Shown: positions 18,120 through 52,376 of the stretch, one piece after another
Numbering within the stretch: position 1 is the stretch's first letter
Layout: each line of letters begins with the position of its first letter
DNA from: JBDROU01 sp043809745 [NCBI: bacterium]
GTDB taxonomy: Bacteria; Elusimicrobiota; JBDRMW01
Reading direction: 5' to 3'
NCBI GenBank assembly: GCA_043809745.1
Contig: JBDROU010000050.1
Location: 1 to 52,525 of the forward strand
DNA: 52,525 bases
Notes under the pieces: model-generated
Told to the model about the DNA's origin: nothing
What the model saw: only the letters and a program-made list of their open reading frames with translations
Database searches by the model: none
Translations under genes and position numbers: made by a program

Positions 18120-19055
18120 TTAATTTGACGAATTTTTGTCTCTAACCGGGCGGAAATTTAAGTGGAATATCTTGTTGTTTGTTAACTCATCTAGTGACCC
18201 CATAGTAATAATCCAATAATTTTCAAGATCTTCATAGGAAATCTCTTTTATTCGGTGATTAATTTGGATTCTTCTTTTTTTTAACTCCGCAACTGCCAAC
18301 GGGTTCTTTTTATCTAAGGCCTCGTTAATTAACATAACAATGGCGTCTTTGATAGAATTAGCATCCCTGCTTTTCTCAGCTATCATCCCAAGACTTTGAG
18401 CGCCTATTAATATTTTCTCTCTCAGTAAAATATTTAATACGTTAAACGCGGCAATTCTAAATTTACCGATAGCAAAGTTTGCTCTATCATTCGAAGTGTG
18501 ATTTTCAAAATGAATCCTTGGATTAATCAAAAATTCAGAAAATACATGAGATGTTCCCTCTAATTTTTTCAGAACCATTTTGTTATTCCTACTGCAATAA
18601 GCCCGCCATAAAGAATTGGCTGCATTTGCTTTAGCTATCAAAACGGCGCAAGTATATTTGTTACAAGTGATAATTCTGCAGGCTGTTTCCATGCCGATTT
18701 CACTCTCGCTGTCAACCAATAACGATATAGAAATCATGGCTTCATTGGCAGCCTGTCCGCTGTATAAACTGCTTTCAATCAGCAGATCCGCAATCCCTTC
18801 AAGCTTGGCAATTACTTCAGATTTCTTTTTTAGATCTGATTCTCTAAGATATTGCAACCTGAGATTATGTATTTCTTTGTATGCCATTTTAGACTTTTGC
18901 TTATCCGGAAATAAAGCAATAACTTTTTCAGCTGTACCCGGACCCGCTGGCGGCGCAAGAAATGAGCTCGAGCTTAATAAAGAATGAGAAATTGCAAGAA
19001 GTACAGCAATTAAATAAATATTTAGATTTATTAGTAAACGTTTAATGTGTTCCAT
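18120..19055 (-). CDS. exported LAPP-motif protein, helical, unknown function
   Basis: I do not recognise a known domain. The first ~31 residues form a signal-like segment (basic MEHIKR then a hydrophobic core), followed at residues 32-36 by FLAPP and then AGPG. The remaining ~270 residues look all-helical with charged and hydrophobic heptads, and may contain HEAT-like alpha repeats (alanine-rich helices such as AANEAMISISLLV and FRIAAFNVLNILL). No membrane helix follows, so a periplasmic or surface location is inferred. The start ATG at 19055 is supported by the promoter just upstream (19072-19120). It is divergent from a second LAPP gene at 19192, with 136 bp between them. It belongs to the five-member LAPP set of this window. 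Confidence 0.65.
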   Translation of the reverse strand: MEHIKRLLINLNIYLIAVLLAISHSLLSSSSFLAPPAGPGTAEKVIALFPDKQKSKMAYKEIHNLRLQYLRESDLKKKSEVIAKLEGIADLLIESSLYSGQAANEAMISISLLVDSESEIGMETACRIITCNKYTCAVLIAKANAANSLWRAYCSRNNKMVLKKLEGTSHVFSEFLINPRIHFENHTSNDRANFAIGKFRIAAFNVLNILLREKILIGAQSLGMIAEKSRDANSIKDAIVMLINEALDKKNPLAVAELKKRRIQINHRIKEISYEDLENYWIITMGSLDELTNNKIFHLNFRPVRDKNSSN

Positions 19056-19071
19056 GGGAAGTTATATTTAT

Positions 19072-19120
19072 ATATTATATCAAGTTTGCATCACTCAAGC
19101 ATGTAAATTAATTGTAAATT
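19072..19120 (-). promoter_or_regulatory. LAPP-type promoter (leftward)
   Basis: On the minus strand AATTTACA (19113-19120 and again 19102-19109) is followed by GCTTGA (19095-19100), 17 bp, and TAATAT (19072-19077). The -10 is weaker than in the other copies and the upstream box spacing differs, but the order and 17-bp spacer match. The start codon lies 16 bp further on. Confidence 0.5.
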
Positions 19121-19138
19121 TTAAAATTTCCTTGCCAA

Positions 19139-19183
19139 AATTTACACGAATTTTACTTGAATCTTAATATCAATATATTAAAC
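19139..19183 (+). promoter_or_regulatory. LAPP-type promoter (rightward)
   Basis: AATTTACA (19139-19146), 8 bp, ACTTGA (19155-19160), 17 bp, TTAAAC (19178-19183). The upstream boxes are identical to those at 48461, while the -10 is poor; TATATT at 19174 is an alternative. The ATG at 19192 is only 8 bp beyond, so the mRNA would be almost leaderless. Confidence 0.55.
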
Positions 19184-19191
19184 TTACTAAT

Positions 19192-21108
19192 ATGAAGAGT
19201 TTTATATTGAAAATTATATCAATTATAGTATCAATCAGTATATGTGTTACTTGTTTACCCACTGTTTCGACAAGTAAAATGCTTCTTGCCCCTCCCGGTT
19301 TGAGTCATTGCATTGATTCATATACATTTTCTAATGATAGTAAAATACAAAGTATTATTGAGAAAAACCCAGAGAAAAAATCTTATCAATCAGGGCTGAT
19401 TACTAAATTGCTAAAAGTGAGTAGAAAGAATCGCAATTTTAAACTGTGGGCTTGGTTATTACAGCCAATAATTGCTTTATCAATTGGGCCTATTATCTTT
19501 GGTGCTCTATTTGCATTGTTTCCGATAAGTATCCCCTCATACTTTCTCCATTGGTTTTCTGTATCAATATTTTTTGGGCTGCAGTACGTGTTCCAAAGTA
19601 ACAAGAGACACTTTGATTGGAGTGCTTTTTTCTTTTCGATAGGCACAGGTTCTTTTGGGCCATTGGTAGGCATAAGTAATTTGCCTATTAATCATTCTGT
19701 AGTTTTATTTTTTGTAGGATTAATGACCGTTGCGATACGTGCTATACATGACATTTCTATAACATATGAAGAACATTCATCTATTGACACAAATGGTCGG
19801 AGAAAAGTTTTGAAGTTAATTGGATTAACAGGAGCTTCAATTGTAGGATTGTCCATTGGAATTATCAAGGTTTTAGATTATGTTAGTTTATCATCTGTTA
19901 ATATAGGTGAGTTTCAAAATAAATTTTTTCAGGGTATTGAAAAAGCTAGCCATAGTGATTACTCTAGCATATTCCCATGGTTTGACTATTTAGAAGTCAA
20001 TGAAAAGCGAAAAGATCTTTCTCCCTTTAGACGTTTTTATGGAACACCTGAAAATTTTGCTTTTAAAATAGTTAGGCTCCATGAAATCAAGAAGAGAGAT
20101 CGGAATATAATACCACTAGCGTATTTGCAACAAGTAAAGGCTATTCGCAGATTGCCAGATTCATATCGTCAGACAATTCTTCAAGTGTCCAATAAATATA
20201 ATCGTCCACCTGAGTTGTATGTTTCCGGAATGATCAATGCAGTTGCAAATCAATACACGATAGATCATGCTTTGTTTGTTTTGAAAAAGCGACAATCTCA
20301 ATGGCAGGATTTTATTGAAAGACTCAAGCAAAACTGGCCACAGTGGCTGCTAAATATAACTTTTTCTGCAAAGCTTGTTGATTTATTTGGAGGGATTGTG
20401 TTTGAGGCAAATAATTCAATGGGAGTTTTTCAAATTCGGCCAGCTATGGTAAAAAGATACCTTAATTCTATTAATGGGCTAAAAGTGGATGAAACAACAG
20501 AAAATAAGAAAATATCGATTGCCTTATTGAATCCTATAACAAATATTCATGCATATTCTGCCATATTAGAAAAAGTGTTGACTGAAGTAGAAAACCATAG
20601 ATCTGGTGCTGTTAAAGGGATTATGCCAGATGTTGGAAGCTATTATCGTGAATCACGATCTGAAATGCTCTTTACTGGTGGGGATGTTGATCTTGAAGCT
20701 CTAAAGGCAATTCCTGAAAAAGCAATTATGGGTAGTGAAGATTGGATATTGGGTGTTTATCATTTATTGTATCATATGAAATTTTATTTTCATCCAGATA
20801 CACTAGCTTTGTCAATAGTATCAGGTATTTTTAATGACAAACCGGCACTATTTGATATAAATGATTTAGAAGAAATGTCTCAAAAGAAAGGATGGGAAGA
20901 TGCCTTTGAAAAAGATCTTGATAATTTAATAAGTGCACAGAATGATTCAGATCCATATATTCGCGATGCAGCTGAGGAGACTATACGTATTATACTTTCA
21001 AATGGGAATTTACACATTAATAACATCCTACTAGGACGGTTTAAACAACTTATAAAACAAAGTAGCCGAAATGTCCCAGTTTATAGAACTTGCTTTAGTT
21101 CTCTTTGA
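19192..21108 (+). CDS. exported/membrane LAPP-motif protein with lysozyme-like segment
   Basis: Function unknown. The sequence has four visible parts. Residues 1-30 are a signal-like helix followed by LLAPPG (31-36). Residues ~75-190 contain about four hydrophobic helices. Residues 203-230 read RRKVLKLIGLTGA plus a hydrophobic run, which looks like an internal twin-arginine-type signal or a further membrane anchor. The last ~400 residues are soluble. In that soluble part NRPPELYVSGMI (near 340) and FEANNSMGVFQIRPAM (near 405) are reminiscent of lytic-transglycosylase/lysozyme-fold motifs with a glutamate before an S-x-G-x-x-Q-I-x-P segment. This is only a resemblance. The ATG is set by the LAPP-type promoter ending 8 bp before it. 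Confidence 0.6.
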   Translation: MKSFILKIISIIVSISICVTCLPTVSTSKMLLAPPGLSHCIDSYTFSNDSKIQSIIEKNPEKKSYQSGLITKLLKVSRKNRNFKLWAWLLQPIIALSIGPIIFGALFALFPISIPSYFLHWFSVSIFFGLQYVFQSNKRHFDWSAFFFSIGTGSFGPLVGISNLPINHSVVLFFVGLMTVAIRAIHDISITYEEHSSIDTNGRRKVLKLIGLTGASIVGLSIGIIKVLDYVSLSSVNIGEFQNKFFQGIEKASHSDYSSIFPWFDYLEVNEKRKDLSPFRRFYGTPENFAFKIVRLHEIKKRDRNIIPLAYLQQVKAIRRLPDSYRQTILQVSNKYNRPPELYVSGMINAVANQYTIDHALFVLKKRQSQWQDFIERLKQNWPQWLLNITFSAKLVDLFGGIVFEANNSMGVFQIRPAMVKRYLNSINGLKVDETTENKKISIALLNPITNIHAYSAILEKVLTEVENHRSGAVKGIMPDVGSYYRESRSEMLFTGGDVDLEALKAIPEKAIMGSEDWILGVYHLLYHMKFYFHPDTLALSIVSGIFNDKPALFDINDLEEMSQKKGWEDAFEKDLDNLISAQNDSDPYIRDAAEETIRIILSNGNLHINNILLGRFKQLIKQSSRNVPVYRTCFSSL

Positions 21109-21118
21109 AGCTTTACAA

Positions 21119-21334
21119 CTAGGACTTGCTTGCCATCCACCTTTCAGTATTTAATGATTCAAGCTTAGCTCTAAGTAATGAAATTAGCGGTTCACTGCAA
21201 TTCCCTAATTTGCTGTCTACTGAAATATAATCCCTCATATTAGTCCTATCAGGCCTTATTAAATAACTCCCAATATTTAACCTTGCAAATATTGTTTCAA
21301 GGATATGCTTTTTAAAAACATTCGATATTGTTCC
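21119..21334 (-). pseudogene. possible gene-end fragment of unknown family
   Basis: The 317 bp between two + strand genes contain, on the minus strand, 71 sense codons in frame ending TAG at 21119, with no start codon at its beginning. The translated stretch (for example IFARLNIGSYLIRPDRT and NTERWMASKS) has a normal protein-like composition, but I cannot name a family. It may be the 3' end of a gene removed by an insertion, or chance. Apart from it and the operator repeats the region is featureless. Confidence 0.25.
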
Positions 21335-21348
21335 CTATTTTTATGCTT

Positions 21349-21396
21349 AAATTTGGTCATTATATATTGACCAAATTTGGTCATTATATATTGACT
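21349..21396 (+). promoter_or_regulatory. tandem palindromic operator upstream of AAA ATPase gene
   Basis: Two 24-bp units repeat head to tail (21349-21372 and 21373-21396), each starting AAATTTGGTCATTATATATT and differing only in the last base. Across the junction, ATTTGGTCA (21351-21359) and TGACCAAAT (21368-21376) form a perfect inverted repeat around an AT core. It ends 29 bp before the start codon, the position of an autoregulatory operator. TTGACC/TTGACT within the units could also act as -35 elements. Confidence 0.6.
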
Positions 21397-21425
21397 AAAT
21401 ATTTTACATATGTTAAAGTATTGGT

Positions 21426-22823
21426 ATGTTAGAGGATTTTGAGGTACATAATCAGTTTAGGGAGTCGGTTGTGAGGTATCGAAACCATGATCCTCATCTG
21501 AAGAAACTAACTTTAGCTCCATTGGTATATTATTCCACTCTGCTACAGGAGAAGAATTTCAATCTTCCTGGTATTTTCGTAATTACTGGAGGAAGGCAAG
21601 TAGGAAAAACTACTTTTTTGAAACAATTGATTCTTAGACTTCTTGAGCAAAAAAAGGTGTCGCCAGAGAGCATTTTGTTTCTTTCTGGAGAGCTTATTGA
21701 TTCGCATCACAAATTGCGCTTGATTATTAACCAATTTTCTGAGCAAATGCAAAAGCATCTTTATCTTTTTGTTGATGAAGTTAACTACATTCCAGATTGG
21801 GATAAGTCTTTAAAATTTCTAGCAGATTCAGGCACATTTGAATATATGTCAATTTTTTTGACGGGTTCTGACACGTCAATTATAAAAGCTGCTATGAAGC
21901 GGTTCCCAGGCCGTCGTGGTGCAGCGTCAGTGGTTGACTATTCGTATAATCCTCTTTCATTTACTGAGTTTGTTTGCCTGAAAGATAAAAAGCTATATGC
22001 TGCATGTCACGATATTATTGAAAAGCCATTACTAAGCACAGTCTCAGAGTATGAGAAATATCATGGAAGACTTCTTGTGTTGCTCAATGAGTATTTGATA
22101 CATGGTGGATATCTGCCAGCTATCACGGAATTTGAGAAGCATAAAGTAATTTCGAGATCAGTTACCAATACATATATTCAATGGATTGTAGGTGATATGC
22201 TCAAACATAACAAAGATGAGCACTATGTATGGGAAATTCTGCGAGGCATTAAGAAAACATATCTTAATGGGATTTCGTGGAATACGCTTGGGAAAAGTCT
22301 CTCGATAGAGCATCACAAAACAGTTGCTGATTACTGTTATCTCTTAGAATCGGCCCATGTCATCCACATCCAAGAGATGCTAGTTGAACATAAATTAGTT
22401 GGTGGGCCAAAGAAAAATCGAAAAATATATTTTCGGGATCCTTTTATAGACCATGCTGTTACTGTACATCTAAATCCGAGCGTTACGACTACTGATATAC
22501 AGAAAAAATTATCTGACAATCTGTTTTTATCGTCTTATATTGAGGCTATTATCGTGGACCACTGTAAACGCCGTTTCCCAACATACTATATCCGGGGAAA
22601 TAAAGGAGAAGTTGATGTGGCGGTGGTCATCGGTGACGAGTTCTTTCCTATTGAAGTCAAATGGACAAATACTATGCGCAGCGAGGAACTTAAGCAAATT
22701 CAGCAATACAAAAAAGGAATCATTCTCAGCAAAGGTGCAGAGCAAAAAAAAATGGGGAACAATACTATAATACCTCTGCTGCGTTTCTTGTTATATATTG
22801 ATCACGGAGTATTCGAGTATTAA
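21426..22823 (+). CDS. AAA ATPase with DUF4143 / nuclease-like C-terminus
   Basis: This matches the widespread family of ~400-460-aa P-loop ATPases with a C-terminal DUF4143 region. Walker A is GGRQVGKT (residues 55-62) and Walker B is YLFVDEVNYIPDW (Asp117-Glu118). SIFLTGSD is a sensor-1-like stretch, and the winged-helix linker (ISWNTLGKSLSIEHHKTVADY) follows. The C-terminal segment GEVDVAVVIGDEFFPIEVKW has the D...ExK arrangement of PD-(D/E)XK nucleases. Function is not established; these genes move between genomes often, and defence or toxin-antitoxin-like roles have been proposed for some relatives. A tandem palindromic operator directly upstream suggests tight self-regulation. It sits between LAPP and SGNH genes, consistent with an acquired gene. 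Confidence 0.85.
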   Translation: MLEDFEVHNQFRESVVRYRNHDPHLKKLTLAPLVYYSTLLQEKNFNLPGIFVITGGRQVGKTTFLKQLILRLLEQKKVSPESILFLSGELIDSHHKLRLIINQFSEQMQKHLYLFVDEVNYIPDWDKSLKFLADSGTFEYMSIFLTGSDTSIIKAAMKRFPGRRGAASVVDYSYNPLSFTEFVCLKDKKLYAACHDIIEKPLLSTVSEYEKYHGRLLVLLNEYLIHGGYLPAITEFEKHKVISRSVTNTYIQWIVGDMLKHNKDEHYVWEILRGIKKTYLNGISWNTLGKSLSIEHHKTVADYCYLLESAHVIHIQEMLVEHKLVGGPKKNRKIYFRDPFIDHAVTVHLNPSVTTTDIQKKLSDNLFLSSYIEAIIVDHCKRRFPTYYIRGNKGEVDVAVVIGDEFFPIEVKWTNTMRSEELKQIQQYKKGIILSKGAEQKKMGNNTIIPLLRFLLYIDHGVFEY

Positions 22824-24372: not shown

Positions 24373-24482
24373 ATTAAGTAGTATACAAAAATCGGCAGTA
24401 TAATCAAATAAATGCTGTGAGACTGCTATTCCAAGAATTCCACAAATATTTTACTTTGAGAAGATATATTTTGTCGGGCTTA

Positions 24483-24523: not shown

Positions 24524-24562
24524 AAGGTTGAATTTAATGTGTATATATGATATTTTATATTA

Positions 24563-25135
24563 ATGCCACAGTTGCCCCGGGAGTTGATCCCAAAACAATA
24601 TTATCATTTCATCACTCGCAGTAATAATCATATTAGGTTGTTTCAAGATCAGGAAGACTTTACTAAATATCTTCGGCTTATAAAATATTATTTTAGGAAA
24701 GGACATATACATTGCATTCACTACTGCTGCATGAATACACATGCCCATTTTGTTGTTTATATGCCGGGATCGGTCCGTCATGTAGGATCAATAATGAAAT
24801 ATATCCAGCTTAAGTACTATCATTACTTTCACAAGAAGTACAATCATGAAGGAATCCTGTGGTGGGGGAGATATCGTAGTGCAATCATAGATACAGAAAA
24901 CTATATGCTTGGATGCGGACTGTATATCGAACATAATCCTGTTAAGGCAGGAATAGTAACACAGCCTGATGAATACCAGTGGTCAAGTTACCGACATTGG
25001 ATCGGAGCAGAAAAAAATGATTTAGTGGTAATAGAGCATCCGCTGCAGGATGTTATAAGGGATTATAAGAATATTGCGGCTGACTATATTGATTCGTATA
25101 TTGAATATGAGCATGGGAAGAAGGGGCGCATGTAA
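24563..25135 (+). CDS. REP-associated tyrosine transposase (RAYT, Y1-type)
   Basis: This single-strand HUH transposase of the IS200-like superfamily is in the REP-associated subgroup. The histidine motif reads NTHAHFVV (His60, His62), the nucleophile is probably Tyr121 in GLYIEHNPVKAG, and YQWSSYRHWIG is the conserved C-terminal motif. The N-terminal LPRELIPKQYYHFITRSNN segment and length (190 aa) fit the family. These enzymes are normally single-copy and do not move themselves; they act on palindromic repeats. Palindromes of GGGTAC type flank the gene on both sides. The ATG at 24563 has no strong ribosome-binding site. It lies between the SGNH gene and tRNA-Ser. Confidence 0.9.
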   Translation: MPQLPRELIPKQYYHFITRSNNHIRLFQDQEDFTKYLRLIKYYFRKGHIHCIHYCCMNTHAHFVVYMPGSVRHVGSIMKYIQLKYYHYFHKKYNHEGILWWGRYRSAIIDTENYMLGCGLYIEHNPVKAGIVTQPDEYQWSSYRHWIGAEKNDLVVIEHPLQDVIRDYKNIAADYIDSYIEYEHGKKGRM

Positions 25136-25433: not shown

Positions 25434-26417
25434 ATGAGTAAATTTAACTTACTTTTTATTTCAATTACATTAATTTTCCACTCTGTATGGCTTTTCGCGG
25501 TTGAAGACAAAAATAATTCTTATATTCAAAAGTTCTATGATTCGATAATAATTGAACCGTTTGTTTCGCAGCAGAAGTTGGAATTAAGGTTTGAAAGTAC
25601 TGAAACCGGTTCAACCCAGAGAATTGATTATAAACCCAATATAAAGACTAATGCCGGTTTTTCAGCGAGTTACAAAAGTTTTGGCGGGGCTGTGTCATGG
25701 AATAATGGTGCGACTGCTTTAGATAATACAGTATATGGAAAATCGGATTATATCGATTTTCAGTTTAGTTTTTATGGGAGTAAGTTCGGTATAGATGCGG
25801 TATATCAGAAGTACAAAAAGTTTTATCTTGATGATCCTAAGAAATTCTATTCGCTATGGCAAGCGGCAGATCCGTATCCGCAGCGGGAAGATTTAAGGAT
25901 TGATAAATATTTTACTAATCTGATTTATGTTTTTTCGCATGACAAATTTTCTTTAAGGGCTGCGGTAAATCAGACTGAAAAGCAGTTAAAAAATGCCGGA
26001 TCATTTTTACTAATCACATCTGCTTCTTTTGTAGATATTAAGAGTAATTATTCTTTAATTCCAGCGAGTCATGAAAAATATTTTACTGAAATAGCCGGAT
26101 TTACGGGAGGTGAGTTTATTGGGATTGCATTAGCGCCCGGCTATGCTTATTCGTTTGTCTGGAAGAACTTTTATTTTACTCCTTATATCTTTTTTGGTCC
26201 TAATATTGTTTATCAGCGTTATGAAGTCACGGAAGGTAAAAAAACATCAGTTAGCGGCGGTGCTAAAGGTATACTTAGGTTGGGAACAGGTTATAATGGT
26301 GATAAATTCTTTGCCGGTATTTATTGGAATGTAGATAGTGCAACCAATAAGCAGAAAGAAGTTTCAGTGGGATCAAGCTCGATGGCTTTTAAGATATTTT
26401 GCGGTTCTCGGTTTTAA
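25434..26417 (+). CDS. probable outer-membrane beta-barrel protein
   Basis: The protein (327 aa) begins with a signal peptide (MSKFNLLFISITLIF...LFAVED; cleavage probably after the alanine near residue 23). The rest alternates polar and aromatic/hydrophobic residues in short strands with many Tyr, Phe, Gly and Ser. It ends in ...KIFCGSRF, a terminal phenylalanine as in outer-membrane beta-barrels recognised by BamA. These features point to an 8-12-stranded barrel, but I do not recognise the family. DUF4421-like proteins have similar lengths and could be checked. The gene follows tRNA-Ser and stands alone. The ATG is preceded by an AT-rich region with TATAAA-like sequence and no strong Shine-Dalgarno. 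Confidence 0.6.
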   Translation: MSKFNLLFISITLIFHSVWLFAVEDKNNSYIQKFYDSIIIEPFVSQQKLELRFESTETGSTQRIDYKPNIKTNAGFSASYKSFGGAVSWNNGATALDNTVYGKSDYIDFQFSFYGSKFGIDAVYQKYKKFYLDDPKKFYSLWQAADPYPQREDLRIDKYFTNLIYVFSHDKFSLRAAVNQTEKQLKNAGSFLLITSASFVDIKSNYSLIPASHEKYFTEIAGFTGGEFIGIALAPGYAYSFVWKNFYFTPYIFFGPNIVYQRYEVTEGKKTSVSGGAKGILRLGTGYNGDKFFAGIYWNVDSATNKQKEVSVGSSSMAFKIFCGSRF

Positions 26418-26594: not shown

Positions 26595-26640
26595 AATTTA
26601 ACAATAATTTTACTTGACCTTAATATGTGTTTTGTATAAT
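26595..26640 (+). promoter_or_regulatory. LAPP-type promoter
   Basis: AATTTA(A)CA (26595), ACTTGA (26612-26617), 17 bp, perfect TATAAT (26635-26640). The upstream box is one base further away than in the other copies. The ATG at 26647 is 6 bp beyond the -10, implying a leaderless transcript and excluding the upstream TTG 26614, which lies within the promoter itself. Confidence 0.65.
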
Positions 26641-26646
26641 TCTATT

Positions 26647-27393
26647 ATGCGAAAACAACTGGGTCAAGTCATAAAATTAGCATTTTATTTATATTTTGTT
26701 TTTATTCAAAGCGCTAGTAACTGTTTTGGTTTAACATTTCTTGCTCCACCTTCTTTTAGAAATGATGCAAATCCTTTAACTGTATCTCCATATTTTGAAG
26801 AACAAAAAATTAAAGCATCCGAAAAAATACCGCAATTAAAGATTCATATAAAAAGCTCCAATAAAGGTAAAGACATAGAGAGTTTTTTGAAGCTTTCTCG
26901 TATGCTTGAAGGTAATTATAGTGAAAAAGATAAATTCAGGCAATATTTGCAATATCTAAAAGCACAAAATGCGTTGCTGGAAACAAATTTAGTAAATAAA
27001 TTTTTGAACAGCAAATACGGGGTAAGATTAAGAAAAGCTCTAGCCAGGGAAGGAATTGAAGAAGTTGTAATTGATTTGATAGATTTTTATTTATGGGAAG
27101 ATTATGAAGATGCATTTGCAGTAAGTAGTATTGTCGAAAATAGCGGAGTATTGTATATTTCGATACCTGATTCTGAAGTTAATAATGAAGATGCGGCTAA
27201 AAATTGGATGCTGTTATTAATGAGCAGAATATGGGAAACAAACTGGGGACAGGATGTGTTTATTTCCGAAGGCTTAATTTTTGAGAAAGATAATGTTGAG
27301 CCAATTCTCATCGAACCTGGGATTTCTATTTCTTCTAAAGTGAACAGAAAGGCCAAAAAATTACCCGACAGGCAACTGGGAAGTTCACAATGA
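26647..27393 (+). CDS. exported LAPP-motif protein, unknown function
   Basis: No known domain is recognised. A hydrophobic signal-like segment (residues ~10-28, LAFYLYFVFIQSASNCFGL) leads directly to FLAPPS at residues 31-36. The mature part of about 210 residues is charged and mostly helical at first (LKLSRMLEGNYSEKDKF), then mixed, and contains FLNSKYGVRLRKALAREGIE and an acidic stretch DLIDFYLWEDYEDAF. It has no cysteine in the mature part and no second membrane helix. ATG 26647 is chosen, not the longer TTG frame at 26614, because the longer frame starts inside the -35 box. It lies between the OMP-like gene and the biosynthetic operon, and shares its promoter type with four other LAPP genes. 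Confidence 0.65.
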   Translation: MRKQLGQVIKLAFYLYFVFIQSASNCFGLTFLAPPSFRNDANPLTVSPYFEEQKIKASEKIPQLKIHIKSSNKGKDIESFLKLSRMLEGNYSEKDKFRQYLQYLKAQNALLETNLVNKFLNSKYGVRLRKALAREGIEEVVIDLIDFYLWEDYEDAFAVSSIVENSGVLYISIPDSEVNNEDAAKNWMLLLMSRIWETNWGQDVFISEGLIFEKDNVEPILIEPGISISSKVNRKAKKLPDRQLGSSQ

Positions 27394-27522: not shown

Positions 27523-28581
27523 ATGGATAATATAACTCAGTTTAGTTTTAAAAGAGTAGAAACAGTCCAAAAGAAACTAAAGGATTATTCCGGGTATCTT
27601 ATATGCGATCCGGTCAATTTATTTTATTTAACCGGTTTCAGCGACGCAGATGTTTTGTTTGTAATATGTAAGAATCAATTGTTTTTTTTCCTGCCTGAGA
27701 TGTTAATTAATCAGTTCAAGAATAGATTCCCCGCAGCGCGATGTATTAGATTAAATAAATTACCAAAAGATCTCGATGTGTTAAAGAAAGAGCGGATTAA
27801 AAAGGTTATAATAGATACTAAGAGAATTTCCTACGATTTCGGTCAGAAAATTTCTAAAAATAAATATTTTTTATATGAGTTTATAAAAGAGGACACTATT
27901 TTAGATAAAATGCGAATGATTAAAGATAAATATGAGATAAATTGTATAAGTAAGGCCTGTGAAATTGCTGCAAAAACATTTAAATGGGTTAGAGGCATTG
28001 TCAAAATGGGGATGACTGAAGAGTATCTTGCCCGCTTAATTAAGCAAAAAATGCTTTCACTAGGAGCGGATGGAGTTAGTTTTGAGCCGATAGTGGCATT
28101 TGGAAGCAATACCAGCTACCCTCACTACGTAAGCAGTAATACAAAAATAGGCAAACAGGGGCCTCTACTGCTGGATTTTGGCTGCAGTTTTAAAGGGTAC
28201 AATTCTGACTTGACAAGAACAATATATTTAGGTAGAATCTCAAAATTATATGATAAAATATATCAAATTGTTTCGTTGGCTCAAGAGAAAGCCATCAGTT
28301 TGATAAGACCCGGGAAAGCTCTCTTAAAGGTTGATAAAACTGCCCGTGATATTATCGGATCGAAAGGATATAAGAAATATTTCACTCATTCTTTGGGTCA
28401 TGGGATAGGTCTTGAGGTGCATGAGTTCCCGAGAGTAAGCAAGAAAAGCAGCGACAAAGCAGCCTCAGGCATGGTTTTGACAGTTGAGCCGGGTATATAT
28501 GTTCCCGGTTTTGGCGGAGTTAGAATTGAGGATGTTGTTTTGGTAACTAATAGCGGTTGTGATGTATTGACTGAATTATAA
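27523..28581 (+). CDS. M24 metallopeptidase, Xaa-Pro aminopeptidase/dipeptidase type
   Basis: The 352-aa protein has the creatinase-like N-terminal domain (YLICDPVNLFYLTGFSDADVLF) and the pita-bread catalytic domain. Metal ligands are visible: Asp in LLLDFGCSFKGYNSDLTRT (two aspartates 11 apart), His in FTHSLGHGIGLEVHEFPR, Glu in VLTVEPGIYV, and Glu in GVRIEDVVLV. It removes an N-terminal residue next to proline or cleaves Xaa-Pro dipeptides in the cytoplasm. The gene precedes efp, accB and accC, a common conserved order in bacteria. The ATG follows AGGAA. An AT hairpin (AGTATTT/AAATACT, 27500-27517) overlaps its leader. Confidence 0.9.
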   Translation: MDNITQFSFKRVETVQKKLKDYSGYLICDPVNLFYLTGFSDADVLFVICKNQLFFFLPEMLINQFKNRFPAARCIRLNKLPKDLDVLKKERIKKVIIDTKRISYDFGQKISKNKYFLYEFIKEDTILDKMRMIKDKYEINCISKACEIAAKTFKWVRGIVKMGMTEEYLARLIKQKMLSLGADGVSFEPIVAFGSNTSYPHYVSSNTKIGKQGPLLLDFGCSFKGYNSDLTRTIYLGRISKLYDKIYQIVSLAQEKAISLIRPGKALLKVDKTARDIIGSKGYKKYFTHSLGHGIGLEVHEFPRVSKKSSDKAASGMVLTVEPGIYVPGFGGVRIEDVVLVTNSGCDVLTEL

Positions 28582-28640: not shown

Positions 28641-29198
28641 ATGATTACAACAGGTGATTTCAGGAATGGTTTAAATATTGAAGTTGATAATGATTTTTAT
28701 ACGGTTGTTTGGTTTCAGCACCATAAACCCGGGAAGGGCGGAGCTGTGCTCAGGGTTAAAATAAAAAATATACATACGGGCGCGATTACCGAAAGAACTT
28801 TTAAGTCCGGCGAGAGATTCCGCGAGGTGAATTTAGAGAGGAAAAGGGAACAATTTCTGTATCGGGATGGGGATATCTTCCATTTTATGAATATGGAAAC
28901 TTACGATCAGATTGAGCTGGGGTTGGATACGGTAGGTGAAAATGCAGTTTTTTTTAAGGAGAATATGGAAGTTTCATTATTAATGCTGGAAGATAAAATC
29001 ATTGGATTGGAGCTGCCCAATTCTGTGGACTTGAAGGTTGAATATACAGAACCCGGGATTAAAGGCGATACCGTTAATAATGTGCTTAAGCAAGCTGAAC
29101 TTGAAACAGGGGTTCAGATTAAGGTCCCTTTATTTATTAATATCGGGGATATTGTTCGTGTTGATACGCGTACAAGAGAATATATAGGACGGGCATAA
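28641..29198 (+). CDS. efp: translation elongation factor P
   Basis: EF-P relieves ribosome stalling at polyproline stretches. The length (185 aa) and three OB-like beta-barrel domains are standard. The domain I loop reads HHKPGKGGAVLRVK, so a lysine is present at the position modified by EpmA-type or other modification systems in other bacteria. The C-terminal signature includes GDIVRVDTRTREYIGRA. The gene lies between the M24 peptidase and accB. Several proteins in this window have PP pairs (LAPP, IMPP), so EF-P would matter for their synthesis; that link is my inference. The start ATG is at 28641 with AAGAG upstream. Confidence 0.95.
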   Translation: MITTGDFRNGLNIEVDNDFYTVVWFQHHKPGKGGAVLRVKIKNIHTGAITERTFKSGERFREVNLERKREQFLYRDGDIFHFMNMETYDQIELGLDTVGENAVFFKENMEVSLLMLEDKIIGLELPNSVDLKVEYTEPGIKGDTVNNVLKQAELETGVQIKVPLFINIGDIVRVDTRTREYIGRA

Positions 29199-46648: not shown

Positions 46649-46661
46649 AGGGATTGAATTA

Positions 46662-47906
46662 ATGAATATAACGGAAAAAATATTAGCGAATCATTGCGGG
46701 AAAAAGAAGGTTGAACCGGGCGAGTTTATTATAGCTGATGTGGATATAGCGCTGGGGAATGATATAACAGCGCCCATAGCAATAAGGGAGTTTTACTCAA
46801 ATGGATACAAAAAAGTATTTAACAATAAAAAAATCGTGCTGGTGCCGGATCATTTCACTCCTAATAAGGACATAAAATCCGCCGAGCAGGCCAATGTGTT
46901 GAGAAAATTTTCTAAAGAACAGAAAATAAAATATTATTTTGACCAGGGGGAGGTTGGGGTTGAACATGCGCTGCTTCCAGAGAAGGGTATAGTATTGCCA
47001 GGGGATTGCGTTGTTGGCGCGGATTCTCATACCTGCACTTACGGCGCTTTGGGTGCGTTTTCTACCGGTGTGGGTTCAACCGATTTGGCCTTTTGCTATG
47101 CTACAGGAAAGGTATGGCTTAAGGTCCCAAAGACTATCAAGGTTATTTTTAGCGGGAAACTTAATAAATGGGTAGAAGGAAAAGATCTCATACTTTATTT
47201 AATAGGGCTGATCGGTGTTGATGGAGCAAATTATCAAGCTTTGGAGTTTACGGGGCCGGTGATAAGCAAGCTCTCTATGGCCGGAAGGTTTACTATGTGT
47301 AATATGGCAATAGAAGCTGGAGGGAAAAGCGGTGTTATTGAGCCTGATCAAATCACATTAGACTATGTAAGAAAACGTGCGCAGAGGAAATATAAATTTA
47401 TTAAATCAGACAAAGATGCGGAGTATGCCAAAACGTTGGAGATAGATGTAAGCAAGCTTGAGCCAATCGTTAGCCTTCCTCATCTGCCGTCTAATACTAA
47501 AATGGTATCTGAGCTCAAGAATATATATGTGAACCAGGTTGTTATAGGATCATGTACAAACGGGAGGATCGAGGATCTTGAGGTTGCCGCAAAGATAATG
47601 AGAGGCAAAAAAGTTCACAAAGATGTAAGAACCCTTATTATGCCTGCAACACCGGAGATATATCGTCAGGCGCTAAAGAAAGGATATCTTGAGGTTTTCC
47701 TAAATGCCGGAGCTGTTATATCACCGCCCACATGCGGGCCGTGTCTGGGCGGTCACATGGGAATACTTGCCGAAGGTGAAAGATGTCTTGCAACAACAAA
47801 CCGAAATTTCGTTGGGCGCATGGGGCATACAAAGAGTGAGGTTTATCTGGCAAGCCCTGCGGTTGCGGCTGCAACTGCTATTAAAGGCAAAATAAGCCTT
47901 CCGTAA
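46662..47906 (+). CDS. leuC: 3-isopropylmalate dehydratase large subunit
   Basis: LeuC carries the [4Fe-4S] cluster that isomerises 2- to 3-isopropylmalate together with LeuD. The 414-aa protein has VVGADSHTCTYGALGAFSTG, VIGSCTNGRIEDL, and PPTCGPCLGGHMG, giving the three cluster cysteines. Its length fits the shorter archaeal/bacterial LeuC2 group rather than the ~465-aa enterobacterial form. The partner leuD and the dehydrogenase leuB do not follow; a small inverted-repeat element starts 4 bp after the stop. Confidence 0.94.
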   Translation: MNITEKILANHCGKKKVEPGEFIIADVDIALGNDITAPIAIREFYSNGYKKVFNNKKIVLVPDHFTPNKDIKSAEQANVLRKFSKEQKIKYYFDQGEVGVEHALLPEKGIVLPGDCVVGADSHTCTYGALGAFSTGVGSTDLAFCYATGKVWLKVPKTIKVIFSGKLNKWVEGKDLILYLIGLIGVDGANYQALEFTGPVISKLSMAGRFTMCNMAIEAGGKSGVIEPDQITLDYVRKRAQRKYKFIKSDKDAEYAKTLEIDVSKLEPIVSLPHLPSNTKMVSELKNIYVNQVVIGSCTNGRIEDLEVAAKIMRGKKVHKDVRTLIMPATPEIYRQALKKGYLEVFLNAGAVISPPTCGPCLGGHMGILAEGERCLATTNRNFVGRMGHTKSEVYLASPAVAAATAIKGKISLP

Positions 47907-47909
47907 AAC

Positions 47910-48031: not shown

Positions 48032-48047
48032 ATTCAAAATTCAAAAG

Positions 48048-48458: not shown

Positions 48459-48460
48459 AA

Positions 48461-48505
48461 AATTTACAAGTATTTTACTTGAATTTTATATTCAAATTAT
48501 ATAAT
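48461..48505 (+). promoter_or_regulatory. LAPP-type promoter
   Basis: AATTTACA (48461-48468), 8 bp, ACTTGA (48477-48482), 17 bp, TATAAT (48500-48505). This is the most complete copy of the shared pattern. It begins right after the PRTase stop codon. The ATG is 48 bp downstream. Confidence 0.7.
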
Positions 48506-48553
48506 TGTGCCTACAGCAGGTAATTCAATATATATTACGTGCCAAATTAAATA

Positions 48554-50503
48554 ATGCGATATAAAAGAATACTATCATTAGCAACACTATGTTTGCTGTT
48601 CATTCCAATCAGTGCTTATTCAAATAATTTTCTGGCCCCGCCAGGTAATATTTCTATTTCAAATAATTCTTTTTCGGAACAGATAACGAATGAGAATGAA
48701 GCTACGCAATTGACTAATAATCTGCAAAATATTTTAATCAGAGTACCTGCGAAAAGCAGCGATCTTACAAAAGAAAAAGCATGGGAAGAAGTTATTCAAT
48801 ACTTCTACTCAAAACCAACAAAAGTGATGGAAAAAGATATTCCGACAATTCTTAAATCGCTGGATGGACTACCCGAAGCAGCTGTGAGTTATTCATGGGA
48901 AGACGGGCAGCATGAAATTGAAATGTATATTTTGAAACTAAAAAAAGACAAACATCATAATTGGCTTCAAAAAAAAAATGCTGTATGCGCCTCATGCTTC
49001 ATGCGAGATAGTTCAACAAAAGAATTACTTGCTGTACATATTTTGAGAAATGCGGGGCCAGAGATAACATTGTGGGAAGAATATACAAAAAAACGTTATC
49101 AAGGTTTTGCATCACAACTTCCCCAATATGAGATGCGCTGGTGGAAAGAGATATCACTAAAAAATAAACCTGATAAAATAATTTCTCTAAATAAAAAAAC
49201 CATACCCACTCTTAACGTAAAACCATGGTTTGGTATATGGGCGACAAAGATAGAAAATAATAATTTACTAGAAAAATTTTTGTGCTATCTAAGTTTTTTT
49301 AATTCTCTTAAAAGAGAAGTAGGTTATTTTCCACCTTCGAGAATTGAAAATTTTGTAAATCAATTAACAGATAGGAAAGAAGCTTTTGTGGGTTCAGCTG
49401 TAGTGCTTGCTGAAGCTCTGCTTGAAACATATTCTGACATTCAGGAGATTAAAGATGCATTACCTGCTGATCCGCTTGAGGCAGCTGAAAAAATACGCGT
49501 TTTAATGACTGATAAAAAAGGAATATTACGCAATGAATGTACACCTTCAACTACTTTTAACTTTTTACGGTTTATTCTGGATAAGAATATAAACTACTTT
49601 AAAAACGTGTTAGATTTAAGACTGGCTGTGCTTGATCAATATCCTGAACTCGAGAAACTTAAAGAAGATCTTGATCTGGACGATCCGCTGGCGGCTGCAG
49701 AGCAAATCCGACATTTATTGACAAATGCTGAAGGCATCCTTAATGCAGATTTATATGTGCCGATTTATGTAGGGAAATTTATAAATTATCTTGCTGGGAA
49801 GGACCATATGTATTTAAGTCAAGCTATAAGTCTTCGAATGGAGTTGCTTGATATATATCCTGATCTGAAAAAATTAAAATCAGCATTACCGGAAGATCCT
49901 TTGGAATCAGCAGAGCAAATCAGATTATTGCTAACGGATATAGATGGGCAGTTAAATAGCAATTATACACCAATTAATTTTGAATCGTTCCTTCGATATG
50001 CTAAAAAGCGTAAAAATGAATATAGATATCTCAATAACGCTATACAAGTACGACTTGCATTCCTCAATGAGTTCCCCGACCTAAAAAAGATGAAGAAAAT
50101 ACTCAACAATAATCCATTTGAATGTTCAGAATCAATACGAATCTTAATGACAGATAGTGATGGGGGAATAAACAAGGCATATACGCCACTCAATATTGGA
50201 TCTTTCATCAGTTATGCATCAGGAAAGCGAAATAATTTTATCGAACCTCTGGTTCGTTTACGACTTGCTTTGCTAAAAGACTATCCTGATCTTAAAAGTT
50301 TAAGAATTGATTTGGTAAATAATCCTGATGAAATTGCTAAGAAGCTACAGCCAAAATTATATGATAAAAAAGGAAAAAATGGTTATAAAAATTTGGATAA
50401 TATTATTAAGAGACTTTATTGGTATGTTGTCGGGATTAGAGTTAGGAATTTACTTGATTCAATGCAGAGTATTAGGCAAAAGGATTTAGATATATCTCAT
50501 TAA
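48554..50503 (+). CDS. exported LAPP-motif protein with five ~72-aa repeats
   Basis: No known family is recognised. A signal-like segment (MRYKRILSLATLCLLFIPISA) is followed by FLAPPG at residues 26-31. Residues ~60-270 form a mixed domain with a WEEYTKKRYQGFASQL stretch that resembles an acetyltransferase-type helix only superficially. Residues ~283-640 contain five repeats of about 71-73 aa, starting near 283, 355, 427, 498 and 568. The shared core is (R)L-x-LL-x-x-YPDLKKLK, then DPLE-A-EQIR-LLTD, then a (Y)TP-I/L-N/S-F-I/L-Y segment. They look like helical repeats for protein or ligand binding. It is transcribed from a full LAPP-type promoter. The following LAPP gene is 79 bp downstream. 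Confidence 0.7.
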   Translation: MRYKRILSLATLCLLFIPISAYSNNFLAPPGNISISNNSFSEQITNENEATQLTNNLQNILIRVPAKSSDLTKEKAWEEVIQYFYSKPTKVMEKDIPTILKSLDGLPEAAVSYSWEDGQHEIEMYILKLKKDKHHNWLQKKNAVCASCFMRDSSTKELLAVHILRNAGPEITLWEEYTKKRYQGFASQLPQYEMRWWKEISLKNKPDKIISLNKKTIPTLNVKPWFGIWATKIENNNLLEKFLCYLSFFNSLKREVGYFPPSRIENFVNQLTDRKEAFVGSAVVLAEALLETYSDIQEIKDALPADPLEAAEKIRVLMTDKKGILRNECTPSTTFNFLRFILDKNINYFKNVLDLRLAVLDQYPELEKLKEDLDLDDPLAAAEQIRHLLTNAEGILNADLYVPIYVGKFINYLAGKDHMYLSQAISLRMELLDIYPDLKKLKSALPEDPLESAEQIRLLLTDIDGQLNSNYTPINFESFLRYAKKRKNEYRYLNNAIQVRLAFLNEFPDLKKMKKILNNNPFECSESIRILMTDSDGGINKAYTPLNIGSFISYASGKRNNFIEPLVRLRLALLKDYPDLKSLRIDLVNNPDEIAKKLQPKLYDKKGKNGYKNLDNIIKRLYWYVVGIRVRNLLDSMQSIRQKDLDISH

Positions 50504-50531
50504 TAAAAAAGGAGGATTAATAAGTATAAAT

Positions 50532-50576
50532 AATTTACAAGTTACTTGCTTGAATTCTATATTAATATCTTATAAT
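50532..50576 (+). promoter_or_regulatory. LAPP-type promoter
   Basis: AATTTACA (50532-50539), 8 bp, GCTTGA (50548-50553), 17 bp, TATAAT (50571-50576). The ATG at 50583 lies 6 bp beyond, so the mRNA is predicted leaderless. An unused AAGGAGG lies further upstream at 50509-50515. Confidence 0.7.
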
Positions 50577-50582
50577 TAATGC

Positions 50583-52376
50583 ATGATTAAAATCGCCAAA
50601 ATAGTTTTTCTTTATATTGCTATTTTATGTCTAGTATTATCAGCATCTAGTATTTTTTGCGAGCTTAACTTTATTATGCCACCAGGCGCGGCAGAGGTTG
50701 GTTCTGCTTACAATCAAGCAGATGACACAAATGATTCTTCTATAGTAACTGGTATTCATAAGCCCAGTCCTGAGACATATACATTGATATTAGCCCTGAA
50801 TATTCTTAATGGGAAGGATCATGATGGAAAGACGCCAATGGATTATGATTACACAACAAAGGCGATGGCGTTGCAAAGAGTATTTATCCATGTGCGCACT
50901 TTGGGCATTATGCCCGTTTATGAAACATTAAATTTGATGCAGCTAAAAGGAATGTTTGATAATATGGGTAATTTGCATTACGGAATATTTAGCGATATAG
51001 CATTGGAGAGTATCATATATGAATGGTCATCAAAATGGCTGCCAAAAATAAATGAACTTGAAAAAAAGCTTGATGATCCCGTTGTATTACATGATCTGAT
51101 TGGATCTTTTAGAAATGAGAATATTCTTTCACTGAAGGATATATATCCTAAAAAAATAAGGGGGAAGGTATTTGTGGTAAGAGTCGATTTTAACGATATC
51201 CATTATAATCCAGAAGATTCCATGATTGATGACATAAGGCTTAATGCCGCTTTTGAGACTCTTGTTTATATAATTAGAAATAAAGGCAAGGTAGTGCTGG
51301 TTACTCATTATGGAAGACCTTCCGGTGTGGGAGTTGAAGAAGAGTTTAGCGTCGAACATATAGCTGCTGCGGTGGAAAAATTATTAAAAATACCAGTAAA
51401 ACTACTCAGAGGAAAAGAAATTGCACCAAACAAATATAGTATAGTGACAAATGAAATTGCTGATGAAGTCCAACGAATGCAAGAAGGAGAGGCAGTATTG
51501 CTGGAAAATGCACGTTTTGATTGGAGGGAAAAATCAAGCATATTAGCAGATAGGGAAGGATTAGTCTATGATTTATCAAGGCTGGGCGATATTTATGTTT
51601 TAGACGGTTTTCCTATTTCTCACAGAGGCGATTCCACAGTAATTGAAGCAAAAAAAGTTCTGCCTTCAATAGCAGGCTTTTGGATGAAAAGTGAATTAGA
51701 AGCGCACAATGAATTTTTGAAATTAATTAAAAGTACTGAACGCGGTCCTATGGCAGTACTTTTTGGAGGCAAGAAAAAAGACAAAATCCCGCTAATTATC
51801 AAATTTACAGAGCAGCTAAAAACCGGTGATATTGTTATGTTCGGTAATGTGCTTTCGGAATTTATAATAAATGAGCACAATAAATTTATTAAAAGGTTAC
51901 AAGCAAAGGGTATTCGAGTAATGCTTAGTGAAGATACTATTGAAGGGAAGGATATCGGGGGCAAGACACTGCAAAGCTTTATTGGAGCATTAGATAAGGT
52001 GTGGTATGTTTACTGGAATGGGCCCATGGGAGAATTTGAAGTATCACCTTATGAAAAAAATAGTTATTGTATCGCAAGAGCAATAAAAGCGCAAATAGAC
52101 GCGGGAAAAATATTAAAAGCATTTGTTAGCGGCGGAGAAACTGCATTTCTTGTAAAATCTGCTTTAAGCTTAACCGAACAGACTCGACAGAAAATACCTA
52201 ATCTATATATTTCAACAGGGGGAGGGACCTCAACAGATTTCTTCGCGTATGAGAGAAATATCGGGATGGAGAACCTCTGGGGAATAAGCAGCTGGTACGG
52301 ACATTTCATACCTGCAGCAGCAGCTGATATGCTTCAAAACTACATAAGCGCAAATGAAGCAGCAACAAGCCAATAG
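50583..52376 (+). CDS. exported phosphoglycerate kinase homologue with LAPP-like N-terminus
   Basis: Residues 1-26 form a signal-like helix, followed by FIMPPG (30-35), a variant of the LAPP motif. A ~140-residue region of unknown kind follows, then a phosphoglycerate kinase-like domain (about 180-597). PGK landmarks are present: VRVDFN (199-204), DDIRLNAA (basic patch arginine), THYGRP, LLENARF, SHRGDST, FGGKKKDKIP (lysine of the hinge/ATP region), WNGPMGEFE (478-486) and ISTGGGTS (543-550). The NDAFG motif is changed to LDGFP and VGGGDS to SGGETA. Most active-site residues remain, so activity is possible, but export would separate it from glycolysis. It is preceded by a LAPP-type promoter 6 bp from the start and followed by an IS3 element. 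Confidence 0.75.
   Translation: MIKIAKIVFLYIAILCLVLSASSIFCELNFIMPPGAAEVGSAYNQADDTNDSSIVTGIHKPSPETYTLILALNILNGKDHDGKTPMDYDYTTKAMALQRVFIHVRTLGIMPVYETLNLMQLKGMFDNMGNLHYGIFSDIALESIIYEWSSKWLPKINELEKKLDDPVVLHDLIGSFRNENILSLKDIYPKKIRGKVFVVRVDFNDIHYNPEDSMIDDIRLNAAFETLVYIIRNKGKVVLVTHYGRPSGVGVEEEFSVEHIAAAVEKLLKIPVKLLRGKEIAPNKYSIVTNEIADEVQRMQEGEAVLLENARFDWREKSSILADREGLVYDLSRLGDIYVLDGFPISHRGDSTVIEAKKVLPSIAGFWMKSELEAHNEFLKLIKSTERGPMAVLFGGKKKDKIPLIIKFTEQLKTGDIVMFGNVLSEFIINEHNKFIKRLQAKGIRVMLSEDTIEGKDIGGKTLQSFIGALDKVWYVYWNGPMGEFEVSPYEKNSYCIARAIKAQIDAGKILKAFVSGGETAFLVKSALSLTEQTRQKIPNLYISTGGGTSTDFFAYERNIGMENLWGISSWYGHFIPAAAADMLQNYISANEAATSQ

What the first reader, a model, noticed from the sequence alone, without database searches (positions are those of the whole stretch)
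18120..52376. Five exported proteins share an N-terminal LAPP motif but no other similarity
Each of the genes at 18120-19055 (-), 19192, 26647, 48554 and 50583 begins with a hydrophobic signal-like segment followed at residues 26-36 by FLAPP, LLAPPG, FLAPPS, FLAPPG or FIMPPG. The mature parts are unrelated: an all-helical protein, a membrane/lysozyme-like protein, a small protein, a repeat protein and a PGK homologue. A fixed-position tag on unrelated cargo is what a sorting, processing or anchoring signal looks like (compare PEP-CTERM or lipobox, but at the N-terminus). I know of no described sorting system with this tag.
Basis: partly seen in the sequence, partly recalled or inferred. Interest (0 to 1): 0.88.

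Follow-up and report, generated by a model that had tools for sequence, protein, structure and literature searches.

The report
Co-regulated exported proteins sharing LAPP tag
In one stretch of an unidentified bacterial genome, five otherwise unrelated exported proteins carry the same short tag (Phe-Leu-Ala-Pro-Pro) just after their export signal, and their genes also share one control element, so they look like a coordinated set whose purpose is still unknown.

Summary
Five genes encode a signal segment followed at residues 26-37 by FLAPPA, LLAPPG, FLAPPS, FLAPPG or FIMPPG; about 0.0013 matches are expected per 45 residues. The bodies are unrelated by BLASTP; weak cross-matches (E < 0.1) are N-terminal only.

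New: all five genes, and no other of 48 ORFs of at least 100 aa, share a 22-bp upstream element, AATTTACA-n3-wwTTTACTTGA. It has 23.68 bits against 17.2 +/- 0.47 in 1000 random five-gene sets (0 reach it); left out in turn, each site is the best remaining in the window. TTWACA-N5-TTTACW occurs 4 times, all before tagged genes; 0.08 expected. This is the layout of OmpR/PhoB-type operators. The exported DUF4421 protein lacks tag and element.

So tag and regulation go together. Best reading: a peptide address tag (0.40). Not excluded: an EF-P-dependent pause (0.25), an inherited 5' module (0.20), a Sec-targeting patch (0.10). No relatives of the tagged genes were found, and the window's genome is not held, so recurrence and any processing enzyme are untested.

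The parts
18120..19055 (-). p1: tagged exported protein, 311 aa, low-confidence all-helical model, no family
18945..18962 (-). tag FLAPPA in p1 (residues 32-37)
19099..19120 (-). shared element upstream of p1: AATTTACAATTAATTTACATGC
19139..19160 (+). shared element upstream of p2: AATTTACACGAATTTTACTTGA
19192..21108 (+). p2: tagged protein, 638 aa, 3 further TM-like segments by hydropathy, sub-threshold SLT-like region 407-474
19282..19299 (+). tag LLAPPG in p2 (residues 31-36)
26596..26617 (+). shared element upstream of p3: ATTTAACAATAATTTTACTTGA; TATAAT at 26635-26640, 6 nt before the ATG
26647..27393 (+). p3: tagged exported protein, 248 aa, no family
26737..26754 (+). tag FLAPPS in p3 (residues 31-36 from ATG 26647)
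48461..48482 (+). shared element upstream of p4: AATTTACAAGTATTTTACTTGA
48554..50503 (+). p4: tagged exported protein, 649 aa, five repeats of 69-72 aa (residues 258-611)
48629..48646 (+). tag FLAPPG in p4 (residues 26-31)
50532..50553 (+). shared element upstream of p5: AATTTACAAGTTACTTGCTTGA (first half-site only); TATAAT at 50571-50576, 6 nt before the ATG
50583..52376 (+). p5: tagged exported PGK homologue, 597 aa, PGK region about 187-554
50670..50687 (+). tag FIMPPG in p5 (residues 30-35)
25434..26417 (+). comparison gene: DUF4421 exported protein with signal peptide but neither tag nor element (only a lone TTTACA upstream)
28641..29198 (+). elongation factor P, the factor that relieves PP stalls (bears on the pause rival; a common gene)

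Best explanation
The five genes form a small regulon of Sec-exported envelope or surface proteins. SHOWN: each has an N-terminal hydrophobic segment, then the tag [FL][LI][AM]PP[GSA], then an unrelated body, and each is preceded by the same 22-bp upstream element (two TTTACA-like repeats 11 bp apart running into CTTGA; p5 keeps only the first repeat; a TATAAT follows in p1, p3, p4 and p5). INFERRED: an OmpR/PhoB-type response regulator binding the repeats switches the set on together. INFERRED: signal peptidase cuts 0-7 residues before the tag, so the mature protein starts with a short hydrophobic stretch capped by two prolines (resistant to aminopeptidases). This end is read by one common envelope partner that holds, places or assembles the otherwise unrelated cargo. 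The partner is not identified.
For: Five tags at nearly fixed position, far above chance. Ala and Pro codons of the tag differ between genes (Ala GCG, GCC, GCT, GCC in p1-p4; four different Pro-Pro codon pairs in five genes), so the peptide is conserved rather than the DNA. The hydrophobic pair before the third residue is kept in 5 of 5, which a plain PP pause would not need. Signal-coding DNA lies within the shuffled range in 10 of 10 pairs. The element is specific to tagged genes: ranks 1-5 of 48 upstream regions, and leave-one-out each is the best remaining site in the window (17.5-25.7, next best 11.1-11.9); TTWACA-N5-TTTACW 4 hits, expected 0.08. The untagged signal-peptide protein DUF4421 lacks the element.
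Against: Only five genes from one 52-kb window; motif pattern, element width and core pattern were all written after seeing the sites. Looser versions of the repeat are not unusual: one mismatch 6 hits against 3.5 expected; a degenerate repeat 13 hits against 8.4. No partner enzyme or receptor identified. No homologue of any tagged protein apart from ordinary PGKs was found, so the tag's conservation between species is untested. p2 is a polytopic membrane protein by hydropathy, an odd cargo for an N-terminal surface tag. Cleavage sites are my reading of the -3/-1 rule, not predicted by a program. A regulon does not by itself prove that the tag is an address.
Confidence: 0.4

Rival explanations
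1. Translational pause: the tag is a programmed EF-P-sensitive diproline stall about 29-36 codons into the message, slowing the ribosome while the signal peptide is handed to the export machinery. The peptide itself does nothing after export.
For: 5 of 5 tags contain APP or PPG, triplets listed as strong stallers in PMC5811046 (passages); of the 7 other PP sites in window ORFs 1 of 7 has a listed strong triplet (PPD) (my count). That paper reports polyproline enrichment near starts and downstream of TM helices in E. coli. It also says that residues up to -5 modulate the stall, so the hydrophobic pair could matter for a pause too. EF-P is encoded at 28641-29198.
Against: The conserved F/L-L/I is not known to me to be required for a PP stall. 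At the stall most of the hydrophobic core is still in the exit tunnel (about 28 residues, PMC5811046), earlier than the roughly 45-codon site described there. EF-P is a common gene, so its presence says little.
Confidence: 0.25
2. Inherited 5' module: promoter, signal peptide and first mature residues descend from one ancestral gene start that was copied in front of different bodies, or the five are one family diverged beyond recognition. The tag is a relic or weakly constrained.
For: Element and tag co-occur in all five. The protein matches with E < 0.1 among the five are N-terminal and some run past the tag: p2-p4 11-91/6-82 (E 0.005 without composition correction, 0.08-0.19 with it), p2-p5 5-74/4-75 (0.03), p1-p3 8-85/8-83 (about 0.05), p4-p5 7-48/10-52 (about 0.09). 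Signal-coding DNA of p2-p5 (0.75) is near the top of its shuffled range (mean 0.64, maximum 0.77).
Against: Signal-coding DNA between element and tag stays within the shuffled range in 10 of 10 pairs and tag codons differ, so any copying is old and both ends have since been kept. Shared hydrophobic segments alone can give such weak matches. p5 is a PGK and p4 a repeat protein with no sequence link between the bodies.
Confidence: 0.2
3. Early-mature targeting patch: the tag is a hydrophobic patch that helps SecA or SRP recognise weak signal peptides (a mature-domain targeting signal), without sorting beyond the inner membrane.
For: Position immediately after the signal and hydrophobic F-L-A; mature-domain targeting signals are a described concept (PMC11720017, title and start of abstract in listing).
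Against: As I recall, described patches are degenerate, not a fixed FLAPPG string; the exported DUF4421 protein of the same window lacks it; it gives no reason for the shared element.
Confidence: 0.1
4. Chance or composition.
For: Small sample, and the patterns were chosen after the fact; looser repeat patterns are not enriched.
Against: 0.0013 per segment; 0 of 100 shuffles; 0 of 1000 gene sets and 0 of 500 shuffles.
Confidence: 0.02

Closest known systems
PEP-CTERM/exosortase, LPXTG/sortase and T9SS CTD sorting tags (recalled)
   Same: A short tag or domain shared by unrelated exported proteins.
   Different: Those are C-terminal; here the tag is next to the signal peptide and no cognate enzyme was identified.
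Lipobox (Lsp/Lgt lipoprotein signal; recalled)
   Same: N-terminal, at the signal peptide boundary, on unrelated cargo.
   Different: No lipobox cysteine; the core is PP, not C.
EF-P-dependent diproline stall sites (PMC5811046, abstract and passages)
   Same: APP/PPG triplets near the start, after a hydrophobic helix.
   Different: Extra conserved hydrophobic pair and a shared upstream element.
OmpR/PhoB-family operators, e.g. KdpE TTTATA-N5-TTTACA (PMC3264566, passages); M. tuberculosis PhoP 7-bp repeats with 4-bp spacer (PMC4832192, start of abstract in listing)
   Same: 6-bp AT-rich direct repeats with 5-bp spacer, 11-bp period (TTTACA-N5-TTTACT).
   Different: Regulator unknown here; p5 has only one clear half-site; the second repeat runs straight into a TTGA -35-like box.
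Signal-peptide-embedded sorting motifs such as YSIRK-G/S (recalled, no call)
   Same: Motif tied to the export signal rather than to the cargo.
   Different: YSIRK lies within the signal of Gram-positive wall proteins; this tag lies after it, in an apparently diderm organism.

Membership tests
PEP-CTERM/exosortase or LPXTG substrates | C-terminal motif + hydrophobic helix + basic tail | tested here: not met
   By reading, the five C-termini (FRPVRDKNSSN, VYRTCFSSL, DRQLGSSQ, RQKDLDISH, ANEAATSQ) have no such tail (sequences); NCBIfam gave no match up to E 10 for p1-p4, p5 not given to that library.
Bacterial lipoproteins | Lipobox with +1 Cys after the signal | tested here: not met
   By reading, no [LVI][ASTVI][GAS]C in the five N-termini; their cysteines sit in ISIC and CVTC (p2), ASNC (p3), ATLC (p4), AILC and SIFC (p5); p1 has none there.
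Tat substrates | Twin-arginine before the signal helix | tested here: not met
   By reading, no RR in the n-regions; p2 has RRKVLKL at residues 203-209, before an internal helix, not at the N-terminus.
EF-P-dependent programmed pause | Strong-stalling diproline triplet (APP, PPG and others) | tested here: met
   5 of 5 tags (with the hierarchy quoted in PMC5811046).
EF-P-dependent programmed pause | Ribosome pauses there and export depends on it | not testable with these tools
   Needs ribosome profiling or reporters.
OmpR/PhoB-family regulon | Direct repeats with 11-bp period upstream of several genes | tested here: met
   TTWACA-N5-TTTACW at 4 of 5 tagged genes and nowhere else in the window; p5 has the first half-site only.
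OmpR/PhoB-family regulon | Cognate regulator with winged-helix output domain | tested here: inconclusive
   Three receiver-domain proteins checked (4260, 6204, 7744) show no DNA-binding domain at E 1e-5; other window ORFs were not checked for one and the rest of the genome is not held.
Sorting tag | Tag recurs on unrelated exported proteins in related genomes, with a co-occurring partner enzyme | not tested
   No genome of the window's lineage was reachable: own genome not held, and the single genome-contig scan kept 80 of 243 loci, all from records titled as Proteobacteria.

The most novel reading that the evidence does not exclude
FLAPP[GS] is a new N-terminal address tag, exposed at the mature N-terminus by signal peptidase and read by a dedicated envelope receptor or transferase, and its substrates form a dedicated two-component regulon that includes a secreted, repurposed phosphoglycerate kinase homologue.
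Probability: 0.25. Interest if true: 0.82.

Novelty: new variant of a known kind. Interest (0 to 1): 0.6.

Why it matters
Known protein-address tags read after export are, as I recall them, mostly C-terminal or lipid-based. A short tag at the mature N-terminus, on unrelated cargo and tied to its own upstream element, would be a new way to mark envelope proteins, or a clear case of a coded ribosome pause tied to export. The element and tag give a two-part signature that can be searched in any related genome to list the whole set, including proteins of unknown function.

Tried and rejected
Chance: rejected. Recent duplication of a 5' cassette: not seen at DNA level. Lipoprotein, Tat, PEP-CTERM and LPXTG membership: not met (read; for p1-p4). 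A Xaa-Pro peptidase-like gene (27523-28581) next to p3 was considered as a tag processor; I set it aside because I recall such genes as common cytosolic neighbours of efp, so there is no reason to link it. The consensus TTTACTTGA with one mismatch was uninformative (28 hits, 27.7 expected), and so were the repeat with one mismatch (6 against 3.5) and a degenerate repeat pattern (13 against 8.4); the element is significant only as the exact double repeat or as the full 22-mer. A first 55-bp alignment anchored on CTTGA put p1 at rank 1161; a 4-bp shift, and then de novo discovery, brought it in. Promoter-like hexamers alone did not separate the tagged genes.

Led nowhere: the genome-contig scan with p5 (80 of 243 loci kept, PGK matches of 24-29% identity in Proteobacteria); eight viral-contig scans, of which one search gave 9 distant PGK loci and one search gave 96 matches to the element, 0 of 96 with the tag in the one or two longest ORFs starting within 150 bp downstream; plasmid tblastn of p4 and p2 and phage tblastn of p4 (no match); PDB sequence search of p2 (none up to E 1) and p4 (one match at E 0.055, not meaningful); single-sequence fold of p4 repeats (mean pLDDT 38), for which two alignments were made and not used; Foldseek of the p1 model (best E 0.019, TM 0.17, not meaningful); DUF4421 searches in the genome holding L023 and in a set of 28 genomes given as its relatives (none; not informative); literature search for the motif string (returned papers on flapping wings) and for a PhoP box (none). 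Dropped rows: L001 (stop codon) and L040 were left out of the PGK alignment (one search used 7 of the 80 loci). Not done: p1, p3 and p5 in plasmids or phages, p2 in phages, p1 and p3 in the PDB sequence search, p1 and p3 in any contig collection.
Full report
1. What was checked. The window is 52,525 bp, 36% GC. Its own genome is not held, so most evidence comes from the window itself. It looks like a piece of a diderm bacterial chromosome: gmhA-like (below the family cut-off) and HldE domain II heptose genes, branched-chain amino acid, leucine and thiamine genes (10 of the ORFs). I did not determine the phylum.

2. The tag. Six-frame search for [FLIMV][LIMV][ARMGSTC]PP in frames of 60 or more codons gave 8 hits: the five reported proteins, VISPP deep inside 46662-47906, and two hits in antisense frames of 73 and 63 codons (34952 LLAPP, 28526 ILTPP), which I take as chance. 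Positions from the likely starts: p1 FLAPPA 32-37, p2 LLAPPG 31-36, p3 FLAPPS 31-36 (ATG 26647), p4 FLAPPG 26-31, p5 FIMPPG 30-35. By composition the pattern is expected in 0.00135 of 45-aa segments; shuffling residues 16-60 of the six clear signal proteins gave at most 2 tagged in 20,000 rounds, against 5 seen. The pattern was written after seeing the five, so these figures are generous, but not by the orders of magnitude needed. In 89 other loci (Gammaproteobacteria, one Rhodoferax, viral contigs) 0 of 130 signal-like N-termini had it, though 11 had a PP; a looser scan found one VIAPP in an ORF without a signal (L085). Those loci are not matched in GC.

3. Who carries it. By hydropathy and reading, the window has six proteins with a classic cleavable-type signal: the five, and a DUF4421 protein at 25434 (PF14391, 4e-50), which has no tag. 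ORFs under 100 aa were not examined. p2 has further TM-like segments at 85, 164 and 206 and a sub-threshold SLT-like stretch (E 0.19). p4 has five repeats of 69-72 aa. p1 gave a low-confidence all-helical model (mean pLDDT 65) with no meaningful PDB match. p3 has no family. p5 has a PGK domain from about 187 to 554 (PF00162 2.7e-59; 13pk 3.3e-36). Aligned with seven proteobacterial PGKs, the substrate-side residues I recall as important are invariant (R200, D202, N204, R219, H242, R245, R311, H347, R348), but GGGIANTF reads FGNVLSEF and about 35-40 residues of the nucleotide domain are missing (39 alignment gaps between residues 447 and 458 or so). The GGGDT/GGGET loop reads SGGET, a minor change. 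I infer that ATP use is lost or changed, as would suit an exported protein.

4. Not one family by sequence. Among the five, BLASTP matches with E < 0.1 all lie in residues 1-91: p2-p4 11-91/6-82 (0.005 without composition correction, 0.08-0.19 with it), p2-p5 (0.03), p1-p3 (about 0.05), p4-p5 (about 0.09). Shared hydrophobic segments can cause this, but it also suits an old common start. Tag codons differ (Ala GCG, GCC, GCT, GCC in p1-p4, Met in p5; Pro-Pro CCG-CCA, CCT-CCC, CCA-CCT, CCG-CCA, CCA-CCA). Signal-coding DNA lies within the range of 100 shuffles in 10 of 10 pairs; the highest is p2-p5, 0.75 against a mean of 0.64 and maximum of 0.77. The 20 residues after the PP are rich in G, S, T, N, D, Q in three (0.55-0.60 against 0.30 in the window proteome) and ordinary in p1 (0.30) and p3 (0.35).

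5. The shared upstream element: the main new result. Reading 80 bp upstream of each gene showed a common TTTAC...CTTGA block. An anchored 55-bp model placed p2-p5 as best remaining site in leave-one-out tests, but p1 at rank 1161 (best only after a 4-bp shift). De novo search for a 22-bp motif in the 120 bp upstream of the five (width chosen after that reading) gave AATTTACAATTAATTTACATGC (p1), AATTTACACGAATTTTACTTGA (p2), ATTTAACAATAATTTTACTTGA (p3), AATTTACAAGTATTTTACTTGA (p4), AATTTACAAGTTACTTGCTTGA (p5), 23.68 bits. Among 1000 random five-gene sets drawn from the 21 other genes with at least 60 bp free upstream the mean was 17.20, sd 0.47, maximum 19.48; among 500 shuffles of the five upstreams the maximum was 19.11. 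Leave-one-out, each of the five is the best remaining site on either strand of the window (17.5-25.7; next best 11.1-11.9), and the five rank 1-5 of 48 ORF upstreams (next 10.8 for 24563, 10.4 for 9686, 9.6 for 32090); DUF4421 is not among the 16 listed. As a plain pattern, TTWACA-N5-TTTACW occurs 4 times in the window, upstream of p1-p4, with 0.08 expected and 0 of 100 shuffles reaching 4. Looser forms are not unusual: one mismatch 6 hits against 3.5, a degenerate repeat 13 against 8.4, TTTACTTGA with one mismatch 28 against 27.7. p1 and p2 are divergent, and their sites are separate (19099-19120 and 19139-19160). The sites end 29-71 bp before the start codon and are followed by TATAAT in p1, p3, p4 and p5.

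6. What the element may be. Two 6-bp AT-rich direct repeats with a 5-bp spacer are the layout of OmpR/PhoB-family sites: KdpE binds TTTATA-N5-TTTACA (PMC3264566, passages), and M. tuberculosis PhoP binds 7-bp repeats with a 4-bp spacer (PMC4832192, start of abstract in listing). I infer a response regulator. None of the three receiver proteins I checked in the window has a DNA-binding domain; I did not check the others.

7. How it may work. Best reading (0.40): a co-regulated set of envelope or surface proteins whose mature N-terminus, exposed by signal peptidase, is recognised by one partner. The -3/-1 rule allows cuts 0-7 residues before the tag (p1 SSS|F, p2 STS|KM, p3 CFG|LT or SAS|N, p4 AYS|NN, p5 ASS|IFCELN); this is my reading, not a program's. 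Main rival (0.25): a coded pause. APP and PPG are listed among strong stallers, and polyproline motifs are enriched near starts and downstream of TM helices (PMC5811046, abstract and passages); 5 of 5 tags hold such a triplet against 1 of 7 other PP sites in the window (my count); EF-P is encoded. Against it, the two hydrophobic residues are also kept, and at the stall the signal core is still in the tunnel; but that paper says residues up to -5 modulate stalls, so this is not decisive. Other rivals: old inherited 5' module (0.20), early-mature targeting patch (0.10), chance (0.02).

8. What is not known. No relative of a tagged protein other than ordinary PGKs was found: the genome-contig scan with p5 kept 80 of 243 loci, all titled as Proteobacteria; viral scans with p4, p5 and p2 found none; a PGK-alignment scan found 9 distant PGK loci, and the tag scan of those loci found nothing; an element scan gave 96 matches, 0 of 96 with the tag; plasmids (p4, p2) and phages (p4) gave no match. 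p1 and p3 were not searched in any collection. These collections are poor places to find an uncultured lineage, so this is not evidence of rarity. Literature: my searches (listings) showed no description of such a tag; in one Omnitrophota paper (PMC10066038, passages) the words 'signal peptide' do not occur. One search was swamped by unrelated words and only open-licence papers are held.

9. Verdict. Observation confirmed and extended; interpretation partly supported. The set is real; the meaning of the tag is open. Interest 0.6.

Noticed in passing
window 50583-52376: Exported PGK homologue with substrate-side residues kept but a shortened, altered nucleotide domain (GGGIANTF replaced by FGNVLSEF, about 35-40 residues missing); possibly a secreted ligand-binding or moonlighting domain.
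   Followed up: partly
window 26635-26647 and 50571-50583: TATAAT lies only 6 nt before the ATG of p3 and p5, so these mRNAs would be leaderless if that box is the -10.
   Followed up: no
window 14048-17620 (-): Two adjacent genes with GGDEF-like and HD-GYP-like parts (named by eye): 15848-17620 is whole, while its neighbour is in two ORFs (14489-15835, 40% identical; 14048-14386, 53% identical to the C-terminal part), i.e. an interrupted copy.
   Followed up: partly
window 49325-50386: p4 repeats end in a loop such as TDIDGQLN or TDSDGGIN that resembles a degenerate EF-hand/dockerin calcium loop before the next helix (resemblance recalled).
   Followed up: no
window 24563-25135: REP-associated tyrosine transposase-like gene (NF047646 7.2e-16, below its cut-off; Y1_Tnp 1.4e-6) between tagged genes.
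   Followed up: no
window 4260-8127: Run of receiver and histidine-kinase proteins; the three checked (4260, 6204, 7744) have no DNA-binding output domain.
   Followed up: partly
window 19798-19818 (p2 residues 203-209): Twin-arginine-like RRKVLKL before an internal hydrophobic helix of p2.
   Followed up: no
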